64,000 nucleotides of DNA from Pseudoxanthomonas beigongshangi (GTDB lineage: Bacteria; Pseudomonadota; Gammaproteobacteria; Xanthomonadales; Xanthomonadaceae), in assembly GCF_016820515.1 (NCBI RefSeq), contig NZ_JADHDV010000004.1, positions 1 through 64,000 on the forward strand, written 5' to 3'. A program made the position numbers and the translations under genes. Shown here piece after piece: positions 21,224 through 26,323 of the stretch. How positions within the stretch are numbered: the stretch's first letter is position 1; the number at the start of each line of letters is the position of its first letter. The notes under the pieces were generated by a model. It was given only the letters and a program-made list of their open reading frames with translations. It had not been told where the DNA came from and searched no databases.

Positions 21224-21300
21224 CCCGCCGTCGCGGCGCGGTTGGAATGCCCGCACGCGCCGCGTACAGTAGCCCGCATCGAGAGGATTTCGGGGGCGCC

Positions 21301-22068
21301 ATGCTGGCTCGGTTAGTGAACGTGTTCCGTGGTTTCTTTGCGCAGTTCGTCAAGGGGATGGAAAAGCGCAATCCGGAAGCCCTGCTGGAACTGGAACAGG
21401 AAAACCTGCGCAAGCAGATCGGCAGCTACAACCAGAGCCTGGCGACCCATGCCGGCCTGGCCGAGCGCCTGATCGGCCAAGTGCGCAAGCTGGAGAACGA
21501 AGAACGCGAGCTGCGCGCGCGCACCACCGCCCACCTGCGCGCGGGCAACCGCGATGCCGCCGCCCAGCACGCCCTGCGCCTGCAGACGGTCAGCCGCGAG
21601 TTGCAGGAAAACCGCGACCAGATGGAGCAGGCCGAAGCCACCTACAAGAACCTGGTGAAGGCGCGCGACGTCGCCGTGGCCGCCGCGCGCGCCAAGATCG
21701 AGAGCCTGAAGGGCGCCATCAACGACATGCGCATGAAGCACGCGCTGGCGGAAATGAACGAGATGGCCGCCGGCATGGTCACCACGATCGGCGGTTCCGG
21801 CGACACCCTCGATCGCCTGCACGAGATGGTCGAGGAAGAGCGCAACAAGGCCGCCGGCCGCGCTCGGGTCGCGCGCGATGCGCTCGACATGAACCAGATC
21901 GAGGTCAAGGAAGCCGAGCAGAAGGCGCTGGCCGACCAGGCGCTCGCGGATTTCGCCGCGGCCGAGGGCATTTCCCTGCAGGCCGAACCGGCTGCGACGC
22001 CAGCCGCGCCCCGCAGCATGGGCGCCGCCGAGGCTGCCAAACCGGTGTCGGAAAACGACGCGGGCTGA
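21301..22068 (+). CDS. pspA: PspA/IM30-family protein (ESCRT-III superfamily)
   Basis: 255-residue, almost wholly helical protein of the PspA/Vipp1 family, which bind and remodel stressed inner membrane. It opens with an amphipathic segment MLARLVNVFRGFFAQFVKGM, then long coiled-coil helices (ALLELEQENLRKQIGSYNQ, LIGQVRKLENEERELRARTT, QTVSRELQENRDQMEQAEAT, KARDVAVAAARAKIESLKGA) and a charged C-terminal tail. The ATG at 21301 has GGGGGCG upstream. No pspB, pspC or pspF lies near; instead it heads a four-gene operon with a classical AAA ATPase, a membrane coiled-coil protein and an SBP-OmpA protein. Confidence 0.85.
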   Translation: MLARLVNVFRGFFAQFVKGMEKRNPEALLELEQENLRKQIGSYNQSLATHAGLAERLIGQVRKLENEERELRARTTAHLRAGNRDAAAQHALRLQTVSRELQENRDQMEQAEATYKNLVKARDVAVAAARAKIESLKGAINDMRMKHALAEMNEMAAGMVTTIGGSGDTLDRLHEMVEEERNKAAGRARVARDALDMNQIEVKEAEQKALADQALADFAAAEGISLQAEPAATPAAPRSMGAAEAAKPVSENDAG

Positions 22069-22085
22069 TCGCCCCGCCCTTGCCC

Positions 22086-22122
22086 GGAGGATGGCCGCCA
22101 TGCAGGCGAAGGCGCACTGATG
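22086..22122 (+). promoter_or_regulatory. Shine-Dalgarno and tiny leader frame coupled to the AAA gene
   Basis: A strong GGAGG (22086-22090) is nine bases before an ATG at 22100 that reads only MQAKAH and stops with TGA at 22118-22120, overlapping the AAA start as TGATG. The AAA start itself has only a weak AAGG in front. Ribosomes ending the leader could restart on the ATPase. Whether the leader is really translated is unknown. Confidence 0.45.
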
Positions 22123-23778
22123 CCGCTCGATAGCAACGCCCCGGCGTGGGCGCACGAACTGGCGCTGGCCTATGAAAGCGGCGCGCACGGACAGTTCGTC
22201 CTGTACGGCAACGTCGGCGATCGCCTGCCGCTGTCGGGGCGACTGGTCAGCCTGACCCGCTGGCTGGAATCGCAGTTGCTCACCGGTTTCGACGTGGTGT
22301 TCCAGTACGACCCCGGCAACGGGCTCACCGTGCTGCGCGGCAGTGATCGCCTGCGCCAGTGGCTGGCCGGTCGCGATGACGCCGCCTGGCCGCGCGAACC
22401 GCGGGCGGCGGTCGAACGCGTTTCCCACTACCTGCGCTACCTCGCCAACCTGAAGGCGCTGGGACAAGGCGACGGCGAGCACGTGGCGGTGATCATGCGC
22501 GGCATCGATCAGGTGTTGCCGGGCGGGCGCGCCGGCGACTTCGAGATCGCCAGCCTGGCCAGCCTGGTGCGCGACTGGGCCAGCGAATCTCCGTTCACCG
22601 ACCAGGCCTTCGCCAGTTTCCTGATCGCCGACAACCTCAACGACCTGCACCCGCAGATCGCTTTCCATCCGCGCGTCGCGCGCATCCGCGTGCCGCTGCC
22701 CGACGAGGCCATGCTGGGCCAGGCGCTGGCGCAACTGCGGCTGGATCACCCGGGCGCCTTCGCTGGGGCCGACGACGGCATGATCACCGGCGCCCTGACC
22801 GGCGTCAGCATCAGCGCCCTGCAAAGCCTGGTGAGGACCTGCGCCCACCAGGGCCGCGCGCTGGGACCGGCCGACTGGTTGCGGGTCAAGAAGCAGCTTG
22901 TCGAGGGCGATGCCAGCGGCCTGGTCGAGTTCATCGACTCCCGTCGCACGCTCGACGACTACGAGGCGCCGCCGGCGCTGAAGGAATGGTTGCGCCAGGA
23001 CATCGCGCTGTGGCGCGCGGCCAACCTGCGCGCCCTGCCGATGGGTTACCTGTTCTGCGGTCCGGTCGGCACCGGCAAGACCTTCCTGGTCGAATGCCTG
23101 GCGGGCGAAGCCGGCGTGCCGGTGCTGAAGCTGAAGAACTTCCGCGATCGCTGGGTCGGCTCCAGCGAAGGCAACCTGGAAAAGGTCTTCCGCCTGATCC
23201 GCGCGCTTGGCCGCTGCATCGTGTTCATCGATGAAGCCGACCAGACACTGGGCAAGCGCGACTCGGGCAACGGCGACAGCGGCCTGTCCGGCCGGCTGTA
23301 TTCGATGATCGCCCAGGAGATGTCCGACACCGACAACCGTGGCCGGGTGATGTGGGTGCTGGCTTCCTCGCGCCCGGACCTGATCGAAGTCGACCTGAAG
23401 CGGCCGGGCCGCATCGACGTCAAGATCCCGCTGCTGCCCACCACCACCGCCGCCGAAAGCGCGGCCCTGCTCGATGCCCTGCTGAAACGCTTCGGCATGG
23501 CGCCGGGCGCTGAGGCATTGCTGGCGCTGCCGTCCCCGTTGCCGCTGTTGCTGACTCCCGGCGCCGCCGAAGCCTTCGCGGTGAAGGCCTACCGGCAGGC
23601 CCAGACCACCGGCGTCGCCCCGCTGGAAGCGATCGCCGCGCTGCTGGCCGGCTACCAGCCGCCGGTGCCGCTGGAGGTGCTGGAGTTCCAGATGCGCATC
23701 GCCGTCGCCGAGGCCACCGATCTGCGTTTCGTGCCACCCTCGCTGCGTCCGCTGGCGGCCGGGAGCACAACGCCATGA
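22120..23778 (+). CDS. Classical-clade AAA+ ATPase of the PspA operon, with degenerate first AAA domain
   Basis: 552-residue ATPase. The active module is residues ~290-450: Walker A GPVGTGKT (314-321), pore loop RWVGSSEGNLEKVF, Walker B CIVFIDEAD (366-374), sensor-1 region WVLASSRPDLI and arginine-finger motif KRPGR (428-431), all in the style of the Vps4/FtsH/katanin clade. Residues ~1-270 look like a second, dead AAA domain (QFVLYGNVGDRLPL, HVAVIMRGIDQVLPG, FLIADNLNDLHP) with no P-loop lysine. It lies directly after pspA and overlaps the next gene by ATGA. Role inferred: remodelling of PspA assemblies, as Vps4 does for ESCRT-III. Confidence 0.85.
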   Translation: MPLDSNAPAWAHELALAYESGAHGQFVLYGNVGDRLPLSGRLVSLTRWLESQLLTGFDVVFQYDPGNGLTVLRGSDRLRQWLAGRDDAAWPREPRAAVERVSHYLRYLANLKALGQGDGEHVAVIMRGIDQVLPGGRAGDFEIASLASLVRDWASESPFTDQAFASFLIADNLNDLHPQIAFHPRVARIRVPLPDEAMLGQALAQLRLDHPGAFAGADDGMITGALTGVSISALQSLVRTCAHQGRALGPADWLRVKKQLVEGDASGLVEFIDSRRTLDDYEAPPALKEWLRQDIALWRAANLRALPMGYLFCGPVGTGKTFLVECLAGEAGVPVLKLKNFRDRWVGSSEGNLEKVFRLIRALGRCIVFIDEADQTLGKRDSGNGDSGLSGRLYSMIAQEMSDTDNRGRVMWVLASSRPDLIEVDLKRPGRIDVKIPLLPTTTAAESAALLDALLKRFGMAPGAEALLALPSPLPLLLTPGAAEAFAVKAYRQAQTTGVAPLEAIAALLAGYQPPVPLEVLEFQMRIAVAEATDLRFVPPSLRPLAAGSTTP

Positions 23779-24632
23779 ATGCGTTCCGCTACGCCTGGGC
23801 CGCCTTCAATGCGCGTCCGCTGGGCATGCCGGTTCCGCCCAACTGGATTGGCCTGGCGGCCTTCGCGCTGGCCGGCATCTTCCTGACGCCGGGTTTCTTC
23901 GTGCTGGGCGCGGGCGCGGAAATCGCCTATCTGTACTGGCTGTCGAACCATCGCCGCTTCCGCGCCACGGTGGATGCGCAGGCGTCGCCGCAGGAGTCGG
24001 AAGCGGATCGGCGCTACCGCGAACTGCGGGATCCGCTGCCCGTCCCGCAACGCCGCCAGCAGGACGCGCTGGAGCACAAGGCGCGCGTGATCATCCAGAT
24101 GCTCGACAAGTCGCCGGTGATGGCGGCACATGCGGACAGCCTGGAACAGTTGGTGTGGCTGCATCTGCGCCTGCTGGCCGCGCGCACCGCGATTGCCGGC
24201 GTGGTGCACACCGCGCGCGAGGAAAGCGCGGTGCTGGACAAGCAGGAAGCGACCATCGAGGCGCGGCTGGGCCGCGACGACCTGAGCGAGGAACTGCGGC
24301 GCAGCCTGCAGCAGCAGAAGACCGTGATCGACCAGCGCCAGGCCGCGCATGCCGATGCCGGTCGCCGGCTCGAGCATGTCGACTCCGAGTTGCAGCGCAT
24401 CGGCCAGCAGGTGGCGCTGTTGCGCGAGCAGGCGCTGCTGGCCATCGACGAAGGCAGCATCGGCAGCTCGCTGGATGCGCTCAGCGCCTCCTTCGCCGAA
24501 GCCAATCGCTGGCTGGAAGGCCAGCGCGACCTGTTGGGCGTCCTCGACCTGAACGCGCAGCCCCGGTTGCCGTCGGCCGTGCTGCGCCCGCCCGTTCCCC
24601 GTACCGTGATCGAAGAAGGAGAGTCGTCGTGA
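23775..24632 (+). CDS. Membrane-anchored coiled-coil protein of the PspA operon
   Basis: 285-residue protein of unknown family. Residues ~23-56 form one or two membrane segments (NWIGLAAFALAGIFLTPGFF, VLGAGAEIAYLYWLS); the remaining ~220 residues are charged coiled coil (DALEHKARVIIQMLDKSP, LDKQEATIEARLGRDDLSEE, LRRSLQQQKTVIDQRQAAHA, RRLEHVDSELQRIGQQVALL). It overlaps the AAA gene by ATGA and the following gene by GTGA, so the three are tightly coupled. A plausible role is to dock PspA or the ATPase at the inner membrane. No catalytic motif is seen. Confidence 0.75.
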   Translation: MNAFRYAWAAFNARPLGMPVPPNWIGLAAFALAGIFLTPGFFVLGAGAEIAYLYWLSNHRRFRATVDAQASPQESEADRRYRELRDPLPVPQRRQQDALEHKARVIIQMLDKSPVMAAHADSLEQLVWLHLRLLAARTAIAGVVHTAREESAVLDKQEATIEARLGRDDLSEELRRSLQQQKTVIDQRQAAHADAGRRLEHVDSELQRIGQQVALLREQALLAIDEGSIGSSLDALSASFAEANRWLEGQRDLLGVLDLNAQPRLPSAVLRPPVPRTVIEEGESS

Positions 24633-26323
24633 GCCGATCCGTTTCCCCGCCGCGCCGCCAGGCCGGCAATGCCAGCGGCAAGCTGATCACCGCGGTGCTG
24701 GTGCTGGCGCTGCTCGCGTTCGGCGCATGGCTGGTGATGCGCGACATGGGCAAGGACGAGCCGGCGGGCGCGACGACCTCGCAGGCGGCTGCCGGCAACA
24801 CCGACGGCAAGGCGCCGGTGCCGGTCGAACCGCAGGCCGGACTGCCCAACCTGGATGCGGCGGCGACCTACCAGCCCAAGGGCAACGTGGTCGACGTCGA
24901 CATCAGCGAGTACGCCGGCTATGCCGGCCTGATCGCGGCCAACGGCGGACTGGAGCCCAATCCGGATTCGTTCTTCGCGCGCGAGTACGGCTTCCAGGTC
25001 CGGCTGAGCCTCAACGAGGAGGAAGGCTGGTCCAAGCTCAACAACGGGCGGGTCGCCGCCTCGGTGACCACCGCCGACACCCTGGCCGTGCTCGGCCGCC
25101 AGTTCGACGTGGTGGTGCCGGCGCAGATCGGCTTCTCGCGCGGCGCCGACCAGGTGGTGGTCGACACCGGCATCGCCAGCATCAACCAGCTCAAGGGCAA
25201 GGTGCTGGCGGCCTCGCAGTTCAACGAAAGCGAGTTCTTCATCCGCTATCTGGCCTCCGAGGCCGGCGTGCCGGTCAAGGTGCTGCGCGACCTCGACGGG
25301 CGCCCGGGACCGGGCGAACTGGGCCTGGTGTTCTACGAGGACGCCTTCGTCGCCTGCGACGCCTACGAGCACGAACTCCAGGGCGGGTCACCGCGCCTGA
25401 ACGGTTGCGTCGGCTGGTCTCCGCGCACCGACGAGGTCGTCGCCGCCTCCGGCGGCCGCGCCAAGACCCTGGTCAGCAACCGCAACCTGCTGATCATCGC
25501 CGACCTGCTGCTGCTCAATCGCGGCTTCGCCGCCGCTCATCCCGACTGGGCGCGCGGGCTGGTGCACGGCCTGCTGGAAGGCAACCGGCTGGTCCGCGAC
25601 GAGGCGGCCACCCAGATCCCGGTGATCGCCAAGGCCTTCAAGTGGAACGAGGCCGACACCCGCGCCGAGCTGTCCAAGGTGCATCTGTCCAACCTGCCGG
25701 AGAACCTGGCCTTCTTCGAAGGCACCATCGATTCGGCCGGCTCCTTCCAGGGCATCTTCCAGTCCTCGGTGCTGGTGTACGGCAACCTGATCAAGAACCC
25801 CGCCGACCCGGCCCGCTTCGTGGACACCGCCGCCCTGCAGGCACTGAAGAAGAAAAGCCTGTACGCCAACCAGAGCATCGCCATCGCGCCGATCCGCAGC
25901 GGCAACGCGCAGGTTTCGCTGGAGGGCGATGCCCTGCTGAGCAAGGACATCCGGTTCTTCTTCCAATCCAATTCGGCGGTGCTCGACAAGTCCGCGCCGG
26001 CCAATGCCGGCTACCTGGACACGATCAAGAACTTCCTCCAGGTCAGCCCCGGCTCGGTGGTGCTGCTGCGCGGCCACGTCGATGACGGCCGCCGCAACGA
26101 GTTCCAGAAACAGGGCGGACAGGAACTGGTCCGGAGCATGTCGCTGAAGGCGATGGAGTTGTCGCGCCAGCGCGCGCAGGCGGTCCGCGATGCCCTGCTG
26201 GAACGCCATCCCAAGCTGGACGCCAACCGGATCGAACTGGTCGGCCGCGGCTGGGAGGAGCCGGCGGGCACCGACAGTGACCTGAACCGCCGCGTCGAGG
26301 TCCAGTGGTTCACCCTGGAATAG
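24629..26323 (+). CDS. Inner-membrane-tethered SBP-like protein with C-terminal OmpA domain
   Basis: 564 residues. The GTG at 24629 (GAAGGAGAG upstream) overlaps the previous stop as GTGA. A single membrane helix (LITAVLVLALLAFGAWLVM, ~18-37) is followed by a linker, then a ~350-residue ABC-type substrate-binding fold of the NMT1/TauA-like class (DISEYAGYAGLIAANGGLEP, FDVVVPAQIGFSRGADQVVV, LKGKVLAASQFNESEFFIRY), and an OmpA-like peptidoglycan-binding domain (FFFQSNSAVLDKSA, LLRGHVDD, NRRVEVQWF). No ABC permease or ATPase is present, so the binding domain probably senses something in the periplasm while the OmpA part grips the wall. Confidence 0.85.
   Translation: MSRSVSPPRRQAGNASGKLITAVLVLALLAFGAWLVMRDMGKDEPAGATTSQAAAGNTDGKAPVPVEPQAGLPNLDAAATYQPKGNVVDVDISEYAGYAGLIAANGGLEPNPDSFFAREYGFQVRLSLNEEEGWSKLNNGRVAASVTTADTLAVLGRQFDVVVPAQIGFSRGADQVVVDTGIASINQLKGKVLAASQFNESEFFIRYLASEAGVPVKVLRDLDGRPGPGELGLVFYEDAFVACDAYEHELQGGSPRLNGCVGWSPRTDEVVAASGGRAKTLVSNRNLLIIADLLLLNRGFAAAHPDWARGLVHGLLEGNRLVRDEAATQIPVIAKAFKWNEADTRAELSKVHLSNLPENLAFFEGTIDSAGSFQGIFQSSVLVYGNLIKNPADPARFVDTAALQALKKKSLYANQSIAIAPIRSGNAQVSLEGDALLSKDIRFFFQSNSAVLDKSAPANAGYLDTIKNFLQVSPGSVVLLRGHVDDGRRNEFQKQGGQELVRSMSLKAMELSRQRAQAVRDALLERHPKLDANRIELVGRGWEEPAGTDSDLNRRVEVQWFTLE

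What the first reader, a model, noticed from the sequence alone, without database searches (positions are those of the whole stretch)
21301..26323. PspA + Vps4-like AAA ATPase + membrane coiled-coil + SBP-OmpA: an ESCRT-like envelope module
Seen: four genes in one direction, the last three joined by ATGA and GTGA overlaps. PspA is an ESCRT-III-superfamily protein (established). The next gene is a classical-clade AAA ATPase with a WVGSSEGNLEKVF pore-loop region like Vps4. The third protein is an inner-membrane coiled coil, the fourth spans from inner membrane to peptidoglycan and carries a solute-binding domain. Inference: the periplasmic protein senses wall or solute stress and the coiled coil relays it to PspA, whose polymers are recycled by the ATPase, a bacterial parallel to ESCRT-III/Vps4. 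PspA-AAA neighbourhoods may have been noted in surveys of Psp systems, but the four-part mechanism is, to my knowledge, not described.
Basis: partly seen in the sequence, partly recalled or inferred. Interest (0 to 1): 0.78.

Follow-up and report, generated by a model that had tools for sequence, protein, structure and literature searches.

The report
Transporter-less PspA–AAA envelope gene cluster
Four neighbouring bacterial genes look like one membrane-care machine: a membrane-coating protein (PspA), a motor ATPase that could take that coat apart, a membrane-anchored coiled coil, and a protein reaching from the inner membrane to the cell wall; clusters of this kind were described in 2024, but this short version, without the transporter genes, is inherited as a fixed unit and carries a conserved tail motif that makes the idea testable.

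Summary
The four genes are real and where stated and form a strict unit: 48 of 49 long-enough public loci carry all four (one with a weak PspA), 45 in this order. In 198 family genomes strong matches to all four occur together in 17, plus one cut by a contig end.

The claim that this is undescribed is wrong: Ravi et al. 2024 (PMC11237479, section 18) report such operons, with ABC transporter genes, and an ESCRT-III/Vps4-like reading.

Corrections: the ATPase is a tandem Cdc48-type chain (no Walker A in the first half, 52 of 52), not a Vps4; the coiled coil shows no detectable kinship to PspA.

New here: a compact form without the transporter beside an ABC-bearing sister form in the same family, and a PspA tail motif [RK]xMG in 48 of 51 loci, absent from 23 classical, 8 same-genome and 5 ABC-type PspAs.

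Best reading: wall-anchored sensing coupled to ATP-driven turnover of PspA polymers. Anatomy is shown; contacts and function are inferred.

The parts
21242..21270 (+). putative sigma-70-type promoter (TTGGAA - 17 - TACAGT) before pspA
   Evidence: Read; similar spaced hexamers before pspA in L012, L013, L024 and L031 (5 loci with the window, of 51 scanned), all close relatives; not tested
21301..22068 (+). divergent PspA/IM30 (ESCRT-III superfamily) with amphipathic N-terminal stretch (res 2-19)
   Evidence: PF04012 34.2 bits, cut-off 33.9; all 21 members of A6 match PF04012 at E up to 0.1; hhalign against classical PspA 97.1%, E 5e-11; hydrophobic moment reached by 94 of 5000 shuffles
22012..22023 (+). 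codons of the C-terminal tail motif RSMG (PspA residues 238-241) after a variable Pro/Ala-rich linker
   Evidence: [RK]xMG in this position in 48 of 51 distinct loci; 0 of 23 classical PspAs; 0 of 8 same-genome paralogues; 0 of 5 ABC-type PspAs
22120..23778 (+). tandem AAA ATPase, first domain degenerate, second with intact motifs
22120..22929 (+). degenerate first AAA domain (res 1-270), no Walker A
   Evidence: GxxxxGK[ST] in 0 of 52 first halves; the profile of this half reaches p97/26S AAA chains only weakly, best E 0.004
23059..23082 (+). Walker A GPVGTGKT (res 314-321) of the second AAA domain
   Evidence: 52 of 52
23152..23160 (+). pore-loop WVG (res 345-347)
   Evidence: WVGxxE in 52 of 52
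23775..24632 (+). inner-membrane coiled-coil protein; hydrophobic helices (res 22-37, 40-58), then coiled coil (about res 90-253)
   Evidence: one strong hydrophobic window at res 25-43; AlphaFold2 model pLDDT 83.3, lower (60-81) in the membrane part; no family above cut-off in Pfam, none in NCBIfam or PADLOC
24629..26323 (+). SBP-OmpA protein: one N-terminal TM helix (res 19-37), NMT1/THI5-like solute-binding domain, OmpA domain (res 444-555)
   Evidence: PF00691, PF09084 in 10 of 13 A8 members, TM window, GHVD in 52 of 52 and LS[RK]xR[AT] in 48 of 52

Best explanation
The cluster encodes a compact, transporter-less version of the known bacterial PspA / tandem-AAA / SBP-OmpA system. The PspA-like protein assembles on the cytoplasmic face of the inner membrane, as PspA does. 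The tandem AAA ATPase remodels or dismantles these assemblies by threading PspA through its second ring; the conserved tail motif RxMG of PspA is a likely handle, by analogy with, not homology to, the ESCRT-III tail that Vps4 holds. The membrane-anchored coiled coil is a second cytoplasmic platform that ties PspA or the ATPase to the membrane. The SBP-OmpA protein, anchored in the inner membrane and bound to peptidoglycan, reports a ligand or the membrane-wall distance; without the ABC transporter of the sister form, its solute-binding domain acts as sensor or tether rather than as transport subunit. Shown: gene content, order, domain anatomy, conservation, co-occurrence, the sister form. Inferred: every physical contact, the direction of signalling, the physiological role, and that the transporter was lost rather than gained.
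For: 48 of 49 loci with all four genes (one with a weak PspA), and still together where order or orientation differs (L040, L057, L058, L065). In 198 family genomes: coiled coil 18, PspA 18 strong, AAA first half 18 strong, the same genomes, SBP-OmpA 17; the one SBP miss (G491) has its coiled coil cut by a contig end. PspA homology. Second AAA with Walker A, pore loop and KRxGR in 52 of 52. Tandem AAA fold. Tail motif and its three controls. The cluster PspA is the only PF04012 protein in 15 of 21 cluster genomes. Sister ABC form in five loci, with NMT1-OmpA, permease, ABC ATPase, coiled coil, PspA and tandem AAA in a row in L129.
Against: No contact between any two of the proteins was tested or predicted. 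ABC-type PspAs beside a homologous ATPase lack the tail motif, so it is not the general ATPase handle and may bind something else. A structural study of PspA (PMC11746142, passages) reports that PspA polymers bind and hydrolyse ATP themselves and argues that an AAA partner (PspF) is not essential for membrane remodelling. A PDB search with the PspA profile found no PspA/Vipp1 chain. One SBP-OmpA stands alone (L056). The cluster is patchy: 4 of the 9 same-genus genomes listed and 17 of 198 family genomes.
Confidence: 0.5

Rival explanations
1. PspA is an adaptor or brake on the ATPase, as E. coli PspA is on the AAA+ activator PspF; the ATPase's real substrate is another protein, for example the coiled coil or damaged membrane proteins (a Cdc48-like extraction machine at the membrane).
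For: Sequence and whole-chain fold are closest to Cdc48/Rix7-type unfoldases. PspA repressing PspF is established (titles cited in PMC8281802, passages).
Against: PspA and the coiled coil are equally constant partners, so gene data do not separate this from the best explanation; no partner was tested.
Confidence: 0.25
2. The system is at heart a solute uptake system: the SBP feeds an ABC transporter encoded elsewhere, and PspA/AAA only stabilise or assemble it.
For: The sister form carries an NMT1-OmpA protein beside a BPD_transp_1 permease and an ABC ATPase; Ravi et al. suggest a link to solute transport.
Against: A motif scan for ABC ATPases finds none in the 64-kb window and hits in only 2 of 53 loci (L015, L019), where it marks one ORF that ends 333 bp (L015) and 1536 bp (L019) before pspA and, with a slightly wider pattern, holds two such motifs in one chain, unlike the sister form; the same pattern finds the ABC ATPase in 5 of 5 ABC-type loci. 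A transporter elsewhere in the genome was not sought.
Confidence: 0.1
3. A structural tether: SBP-OmpA and the coiled coil hold inner membrane, PspA and wall together; the ATPase is a quality-control factor for this scaffold and there is no signalling.
For: OmpA Asp and Arg conserved (D485, R515 invariant in the 13 rows of A8); single TM helix.
Against: The solute-binding part is strongly conserved over phyla (many invariant columns at residues 91-300 in A8; mean column identity of the whole alignment 69%), which a pure tether would not need.
Confidence: 0.15

Closest known systems
PspA / tandem AAA (first domain inactive) / TM-Snf7 / ABC ATPase + permease / PBPB-OmpA operons of Ravi et al. 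2024 (PMC11237479; section 18 read in full; other passages)
   Same: PspA, two-AAA ATPase with inactive first domain, membrane-anchored protein, solute-binding + OmpA protein; ESCRT-like reading already given
   Different: Window form has no ABC ATPase by motif and none of the other ABC-type neighbours between its genes; its PspA bears the RxMG tail; the coiled coil is not recognisably PspA-related here (not compared with Snf7)
ESCRT-III / Vps4 (eukaryotes, archaea)
   Different: No MIT family matched; tandem AAA chain with first half lacking Walker A; tail motif differs from MIM1/MIM2 (recalled)
Cdc48/p97, Rix7/NVL, Afg2 tandem AAA unfoldases
   Same: Whole-chain fold (7swl_B E 2.2e-20); best PDB sequence hits are the second domain of Cdc48/p97
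   Different: Starts directly with the first AAA domain in the model, no p97-type N domain; first half lacks Walker A in 52 of 52
Classical psp operon (pspF-pspABCD)
   Same: PspA homologue
   Different: No PspB/PspC/PspF-like ORF among the four genes; one PspC-domain protein lies on another contig; PspB and PspF were not sought in the genome

Membership tests
PspA/IM30 (ESCRT-III superfamily) | sequence homology to PspA/IM30 | tested here: met
   PF04012 34.2 bits vs 33.9; all 21 A6 members at E up to 0.1; hhalign 97.1%, E 5e-11
PspA/IM30 (ESCRT-III superfamily) | polymerisation and membrane remodelling | not testable with these tools
   needs protein and lipids
Vps4 | N-terminal MIT domain | tested here: not met
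   no MIT family at E up to 0.1 in Pfam; residues from 7 on align with tandem AAA chains
Vps4 | single AAA domain per chain | tested here: not met
   chain aligns to tandem AAA chains over residues 7-533 or so
Vps4 | classical AAA core with aromatic pore loop | tested here: met
Tandem AAA with inactive first domain (Ravi et al. partner) | two AAA domains, first without Walker A | tested here: met
   Walker A 0 of 52 first halves, 52 of 52 second halves; likewise 5 of 5 ABC-type
ABC-type PspA/AAA/SBP-OmpA operon | ABC ATPase and permease in the cluster | tested here: not met
   no ABC motif in the window, positive control 5 of 5; the four genes leave no room for a permease between them
TM-Snf7 (as named by Ravi et al.) | coiled coil homologous to Snf7/PspA | tested here: inconclusive
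   hhalign to PspA 0.4% and 2.2%; not compared with a Snf7 profile
NMT1/THI5 solute-binding proteins | NMT1 domain | tested here: met
   10 of 13 A8 members at E up to 0.1, best 5e-5, not the window protein itself; 2.6e-8, over cut-off, in ABC-type L129
OmpA-like peptidoglycan binders | OmpA domain with conserved Asp and Arg | tested here: met
   PF00691 in 13 of 13; D485 and R515 invariant in A8; that these are the binding residues is recalled

The most novel reading that the evidence does not exclude
The compact form is a self-contained bacterial ESCRT-like machine in which a short linear motif, RxMG, at the end of PspA recruits a tandem AAA unfoldase that turns PspA polymers over, under control of a peptidoglycan-anchored solute-binding sensor that has no transporter: an independently evolved counterpart of the MIM-MIT link between ESCRT-III and Vps4, serving in most hosts as the only PspA system.
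Probability: 0.25. Interest if true: 0.75.

Novelty: new variant of a known kind. Interest (0 to 1): 0.42.

Why it matters
Whether bacterial PspA/Vipp1 polymers have a dedicated ATPase like Vps4 is stated as open in Liu et al. 2021 (PMC8281802, passages). This small, strictly kept cluster is a tractable place to ask: four genes, a host with no other PF04012 protein in 15 of 21 genomes, and a four-residue tail motif that can be deleted.

Tried and rejected

Sigma-54 control: 5 of 49 upstream regions had 2 mismatches against 0.9 expected from shuffles, but all lie 7-11 nt from the start codon and four are Pseudomonas relatives; rejected. Sigma-E: as in shuffles. Plasmids: no PLSDB match at 1e-40. 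Defence system: weak AAA-core hits to IetA models (39.7 bits at best) and coiled-coil hits of PspA at 18.4 bits or less.

Tail controls: the first script returned no control because the family HMM does not reach classical PspA; redone by coordinates: 29 loci, 28 ORFs extracted (L090 missed); dropped L083 (mis-extracted) and L093-L096 (below the Pfam cut-off; L095 matched only the looser [RK]x[MIL]G); 23 kept. Paralogues: 8 proteins. ABC-type tails were read by eye. In one search the regex counted 52 of 52 (looser) and 49 of 52 (strict); I dropped L004, a duplicate of L065, and counted the L058 hit, which lies in a helix 28 residues from the end, as a miss: 48 of 51.

One search also grouped two further families in L020, L040 and Steroidobacter loci (10 and 7 loci), but at differing positions on both sides of the cluster; not identified, not counted as members.

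The 53 loci were found through two peptide patterns of the SBP-OmpA protein, so ABC-type and more distant forms are not sampled there; many are MAG contigs.
Full report
Observation. The window lies in a 4.23-Mb genome (G000, contig C34) close to Pseudoxanthomonas (L012, Pseudoxanthomonas sp. z9: SBP-OmpA 97% identical). A sigma-70-like promoter (21242-21270) lies in the 77-bp gap between the 6-phosphogluconolactonase gene and pspA; similar sequences precede pspA in L012, L013, L024 and L031.

A real unit. A scan of the species-genome collection with two peptide patterns of the SBP-OmpA profile gave 53 loci, among them Xanthomonadales, Pseudomonas, Steroidobacter, a Desulfatitalea, a Chromatiales bacterium and two planctomycetes. 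Four are too short to judge (L017, L029, L063, L064). Of the other 49, 48 encode all four genes and 45 keep order and strand; L040 and L057 have the two halves divergent, L058 has another order, and L056 has SBP-OmpA alone. In L058 the PspA is weak: 29.9 bits with the family profile, PF04012 15.0 bits, below cut-off. Outside these 53, L065 (genome G342) has yet another order and L066 (G318) is canonical. A neighbour clustering found the four genes in most loci and other families mainly within one lineage; it is coarse, holds shadow ORFs, and two unidentified families were shared by L020, L040 and Steroidobacter loci at differing positions. In L056's genome no coiled-coil gene was found, while the same profile found it in 18 of 198 family genomes; its AAA was not sought.

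Distribution. SBP-OmpA occurs in 3 of 369 class genomes (own included) and 17 of 198 family genomes, 4 of the 9 same-genus genomes listed (own included). Coiled coil: 18 of 198. PspA profile: 23 of 198, 18 strong and 5 weak. AAA first half: 27 of 198, 18 strong and 9 weak. The 18 strong genomes are the same; the missing SBP is in G491, where the coiled coil runs into a contig end. In G438 the PspA is in two pieces. This is a patchy accessory unit. Of 24 loci handed to, 23 genomes were searched; leaving out L056 and L058, the cluster PspA is the only PF04012 match in 15 of 21, and 6 have one or two more.

The proteins. PspA: borderline in Pfam, related to classical PspA by profile comparison, though its profile finds no PspA chain in the PDB. 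ATPase: the second half has Walker A, aromatic pore loop and KRxGR in 52 of 52 chains; the first half has no Walker A in 52 of 52; a strict Walker-B pattern matched 36 of 52, while D371, E372, A373 and D374 are invariant in the 28 rows of A5. The model (pLDDT 85.1) matches Rix7, p97 and NVL (VIA over residues 7 to about 530). The second domain alone ties Vps4, spastin and p97 D2. Coiled coil: hydrophobic helices then a long coiled coil. SBP-OmpA: TM helix, NMT1-like domain, OmpA domain.

Tail motif. After a variable linker, [RK]xMG lies 8-18 residues from the PspA C-terminus in 48 of 51 distinct loci; the others are RSLG (L041), KEIG (L065) and none (L058). It is in 0 of 23 classical PspAs, 0 of 8 paralogues from cluster-bearing genomes or from L056's genome and 0 of 5 ABC-type PspAs. 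The loci are related, so these counts are not independent events.

Sister form. The weak hits led me to fetch five loci in the same family. In L129 the order is SBP(NMT1)-OmpA, permease, ABC ATPase, coiled coil, PspA, tandem AAA, TerB. Its coiled coil is related to the window's family (profile E 6.5e-7 in L130, 5.6e-5 in L129, no match at 0.01 in L128, L131, L132), and L058's coiled coil gives BLAST E 6e-6 to 3e-10 with L128-L130 (no composition correction). An ABC motif scan finds the ABC ATPase in 5 of 5 ABC-type loci, nothing in the window, and in the 53 compact loci only one ORF each in L015 and L019 upstream of pspA. In an AAA tree of 19 rows the 5 ABC-type rows lie on one side of a branch, support 100/100, with a long and unsure L058 row next to them. 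The root is unknown, so that the transporter was lost is my inference.

Literature. Ravi et al. 2024 (section 18 read in full; passages) describe this kind of operon and its ESCRT-like reading; their text says the ABC and SBP-OmpA genes 'may occur in longer operons', and their supplements could not be opened, so a transporter-less form may be listed there. Makarova-type ESCRT survey PMC11188069 (passages) confines ESCRT systems with both vps4 and ESCRT-III to archaea and eukaryotes. Popp et al. 2022 (PMC9239133, passages) have no occurrence of OmpA or Xanthomon- in the main text. Searches (listings only) showed no title or abstract start about an experimental study of such a cluster; the library lacks most subscription papers.

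Verdict. A sound unit of an already described kind; the compact transporter-less form and the PspA tail motif are the new, testable parts.

Noticed in passing
L129:6132-13801 (also L128, L130-L132): ABC-transporter-bearing sister cluster in the same family: SBP(NMT1)-OmpA, permease, ABC ATPase, coiled coil, PspA, tandem AAA, with a TerB-domain gene after it in L129.
   Followed up: partly
L056:9986-11665: Orphan SBP-OmpA in Pseudomonas sp. WN033, whose genome has a classical PspA (L097) but no coiled-coil match.
   Followed up: partly
L058:8194-9036: A VWA-domain gene (PF00092, 26.6 bits) precedes the PspA-like gene in the reordered Planctomycetota cluster.
   Followed up: partly
L061:6639-7445: PspA reading frame is split (also G438:C8): frameshift or assembly error.
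   Followed up: no
L015:2903-6385 and L019:3282-5156: ORF with two ABC-ATPase motifs shortly upstream of pspA in two Xanthomonas loci; perhaps an ABC-F or UvrA-like protein, not identified.
   Followed up: no
L130:6267-7124: ORF without a Pfam match between coiled coil and PspA in an ABC-type cluster; it overlaps the stretch upstream of the PspA frame and may be a gene or a chance frame.
   Followed up: no
window:23775-24632: Invariant blocks in the coiled-coil protein outside the coil in A1: AFxA(R/K)PxGMPxPxN before the membrane helices and LPxxVL near the C-terminus, possible docking sites.
   Followed up: no
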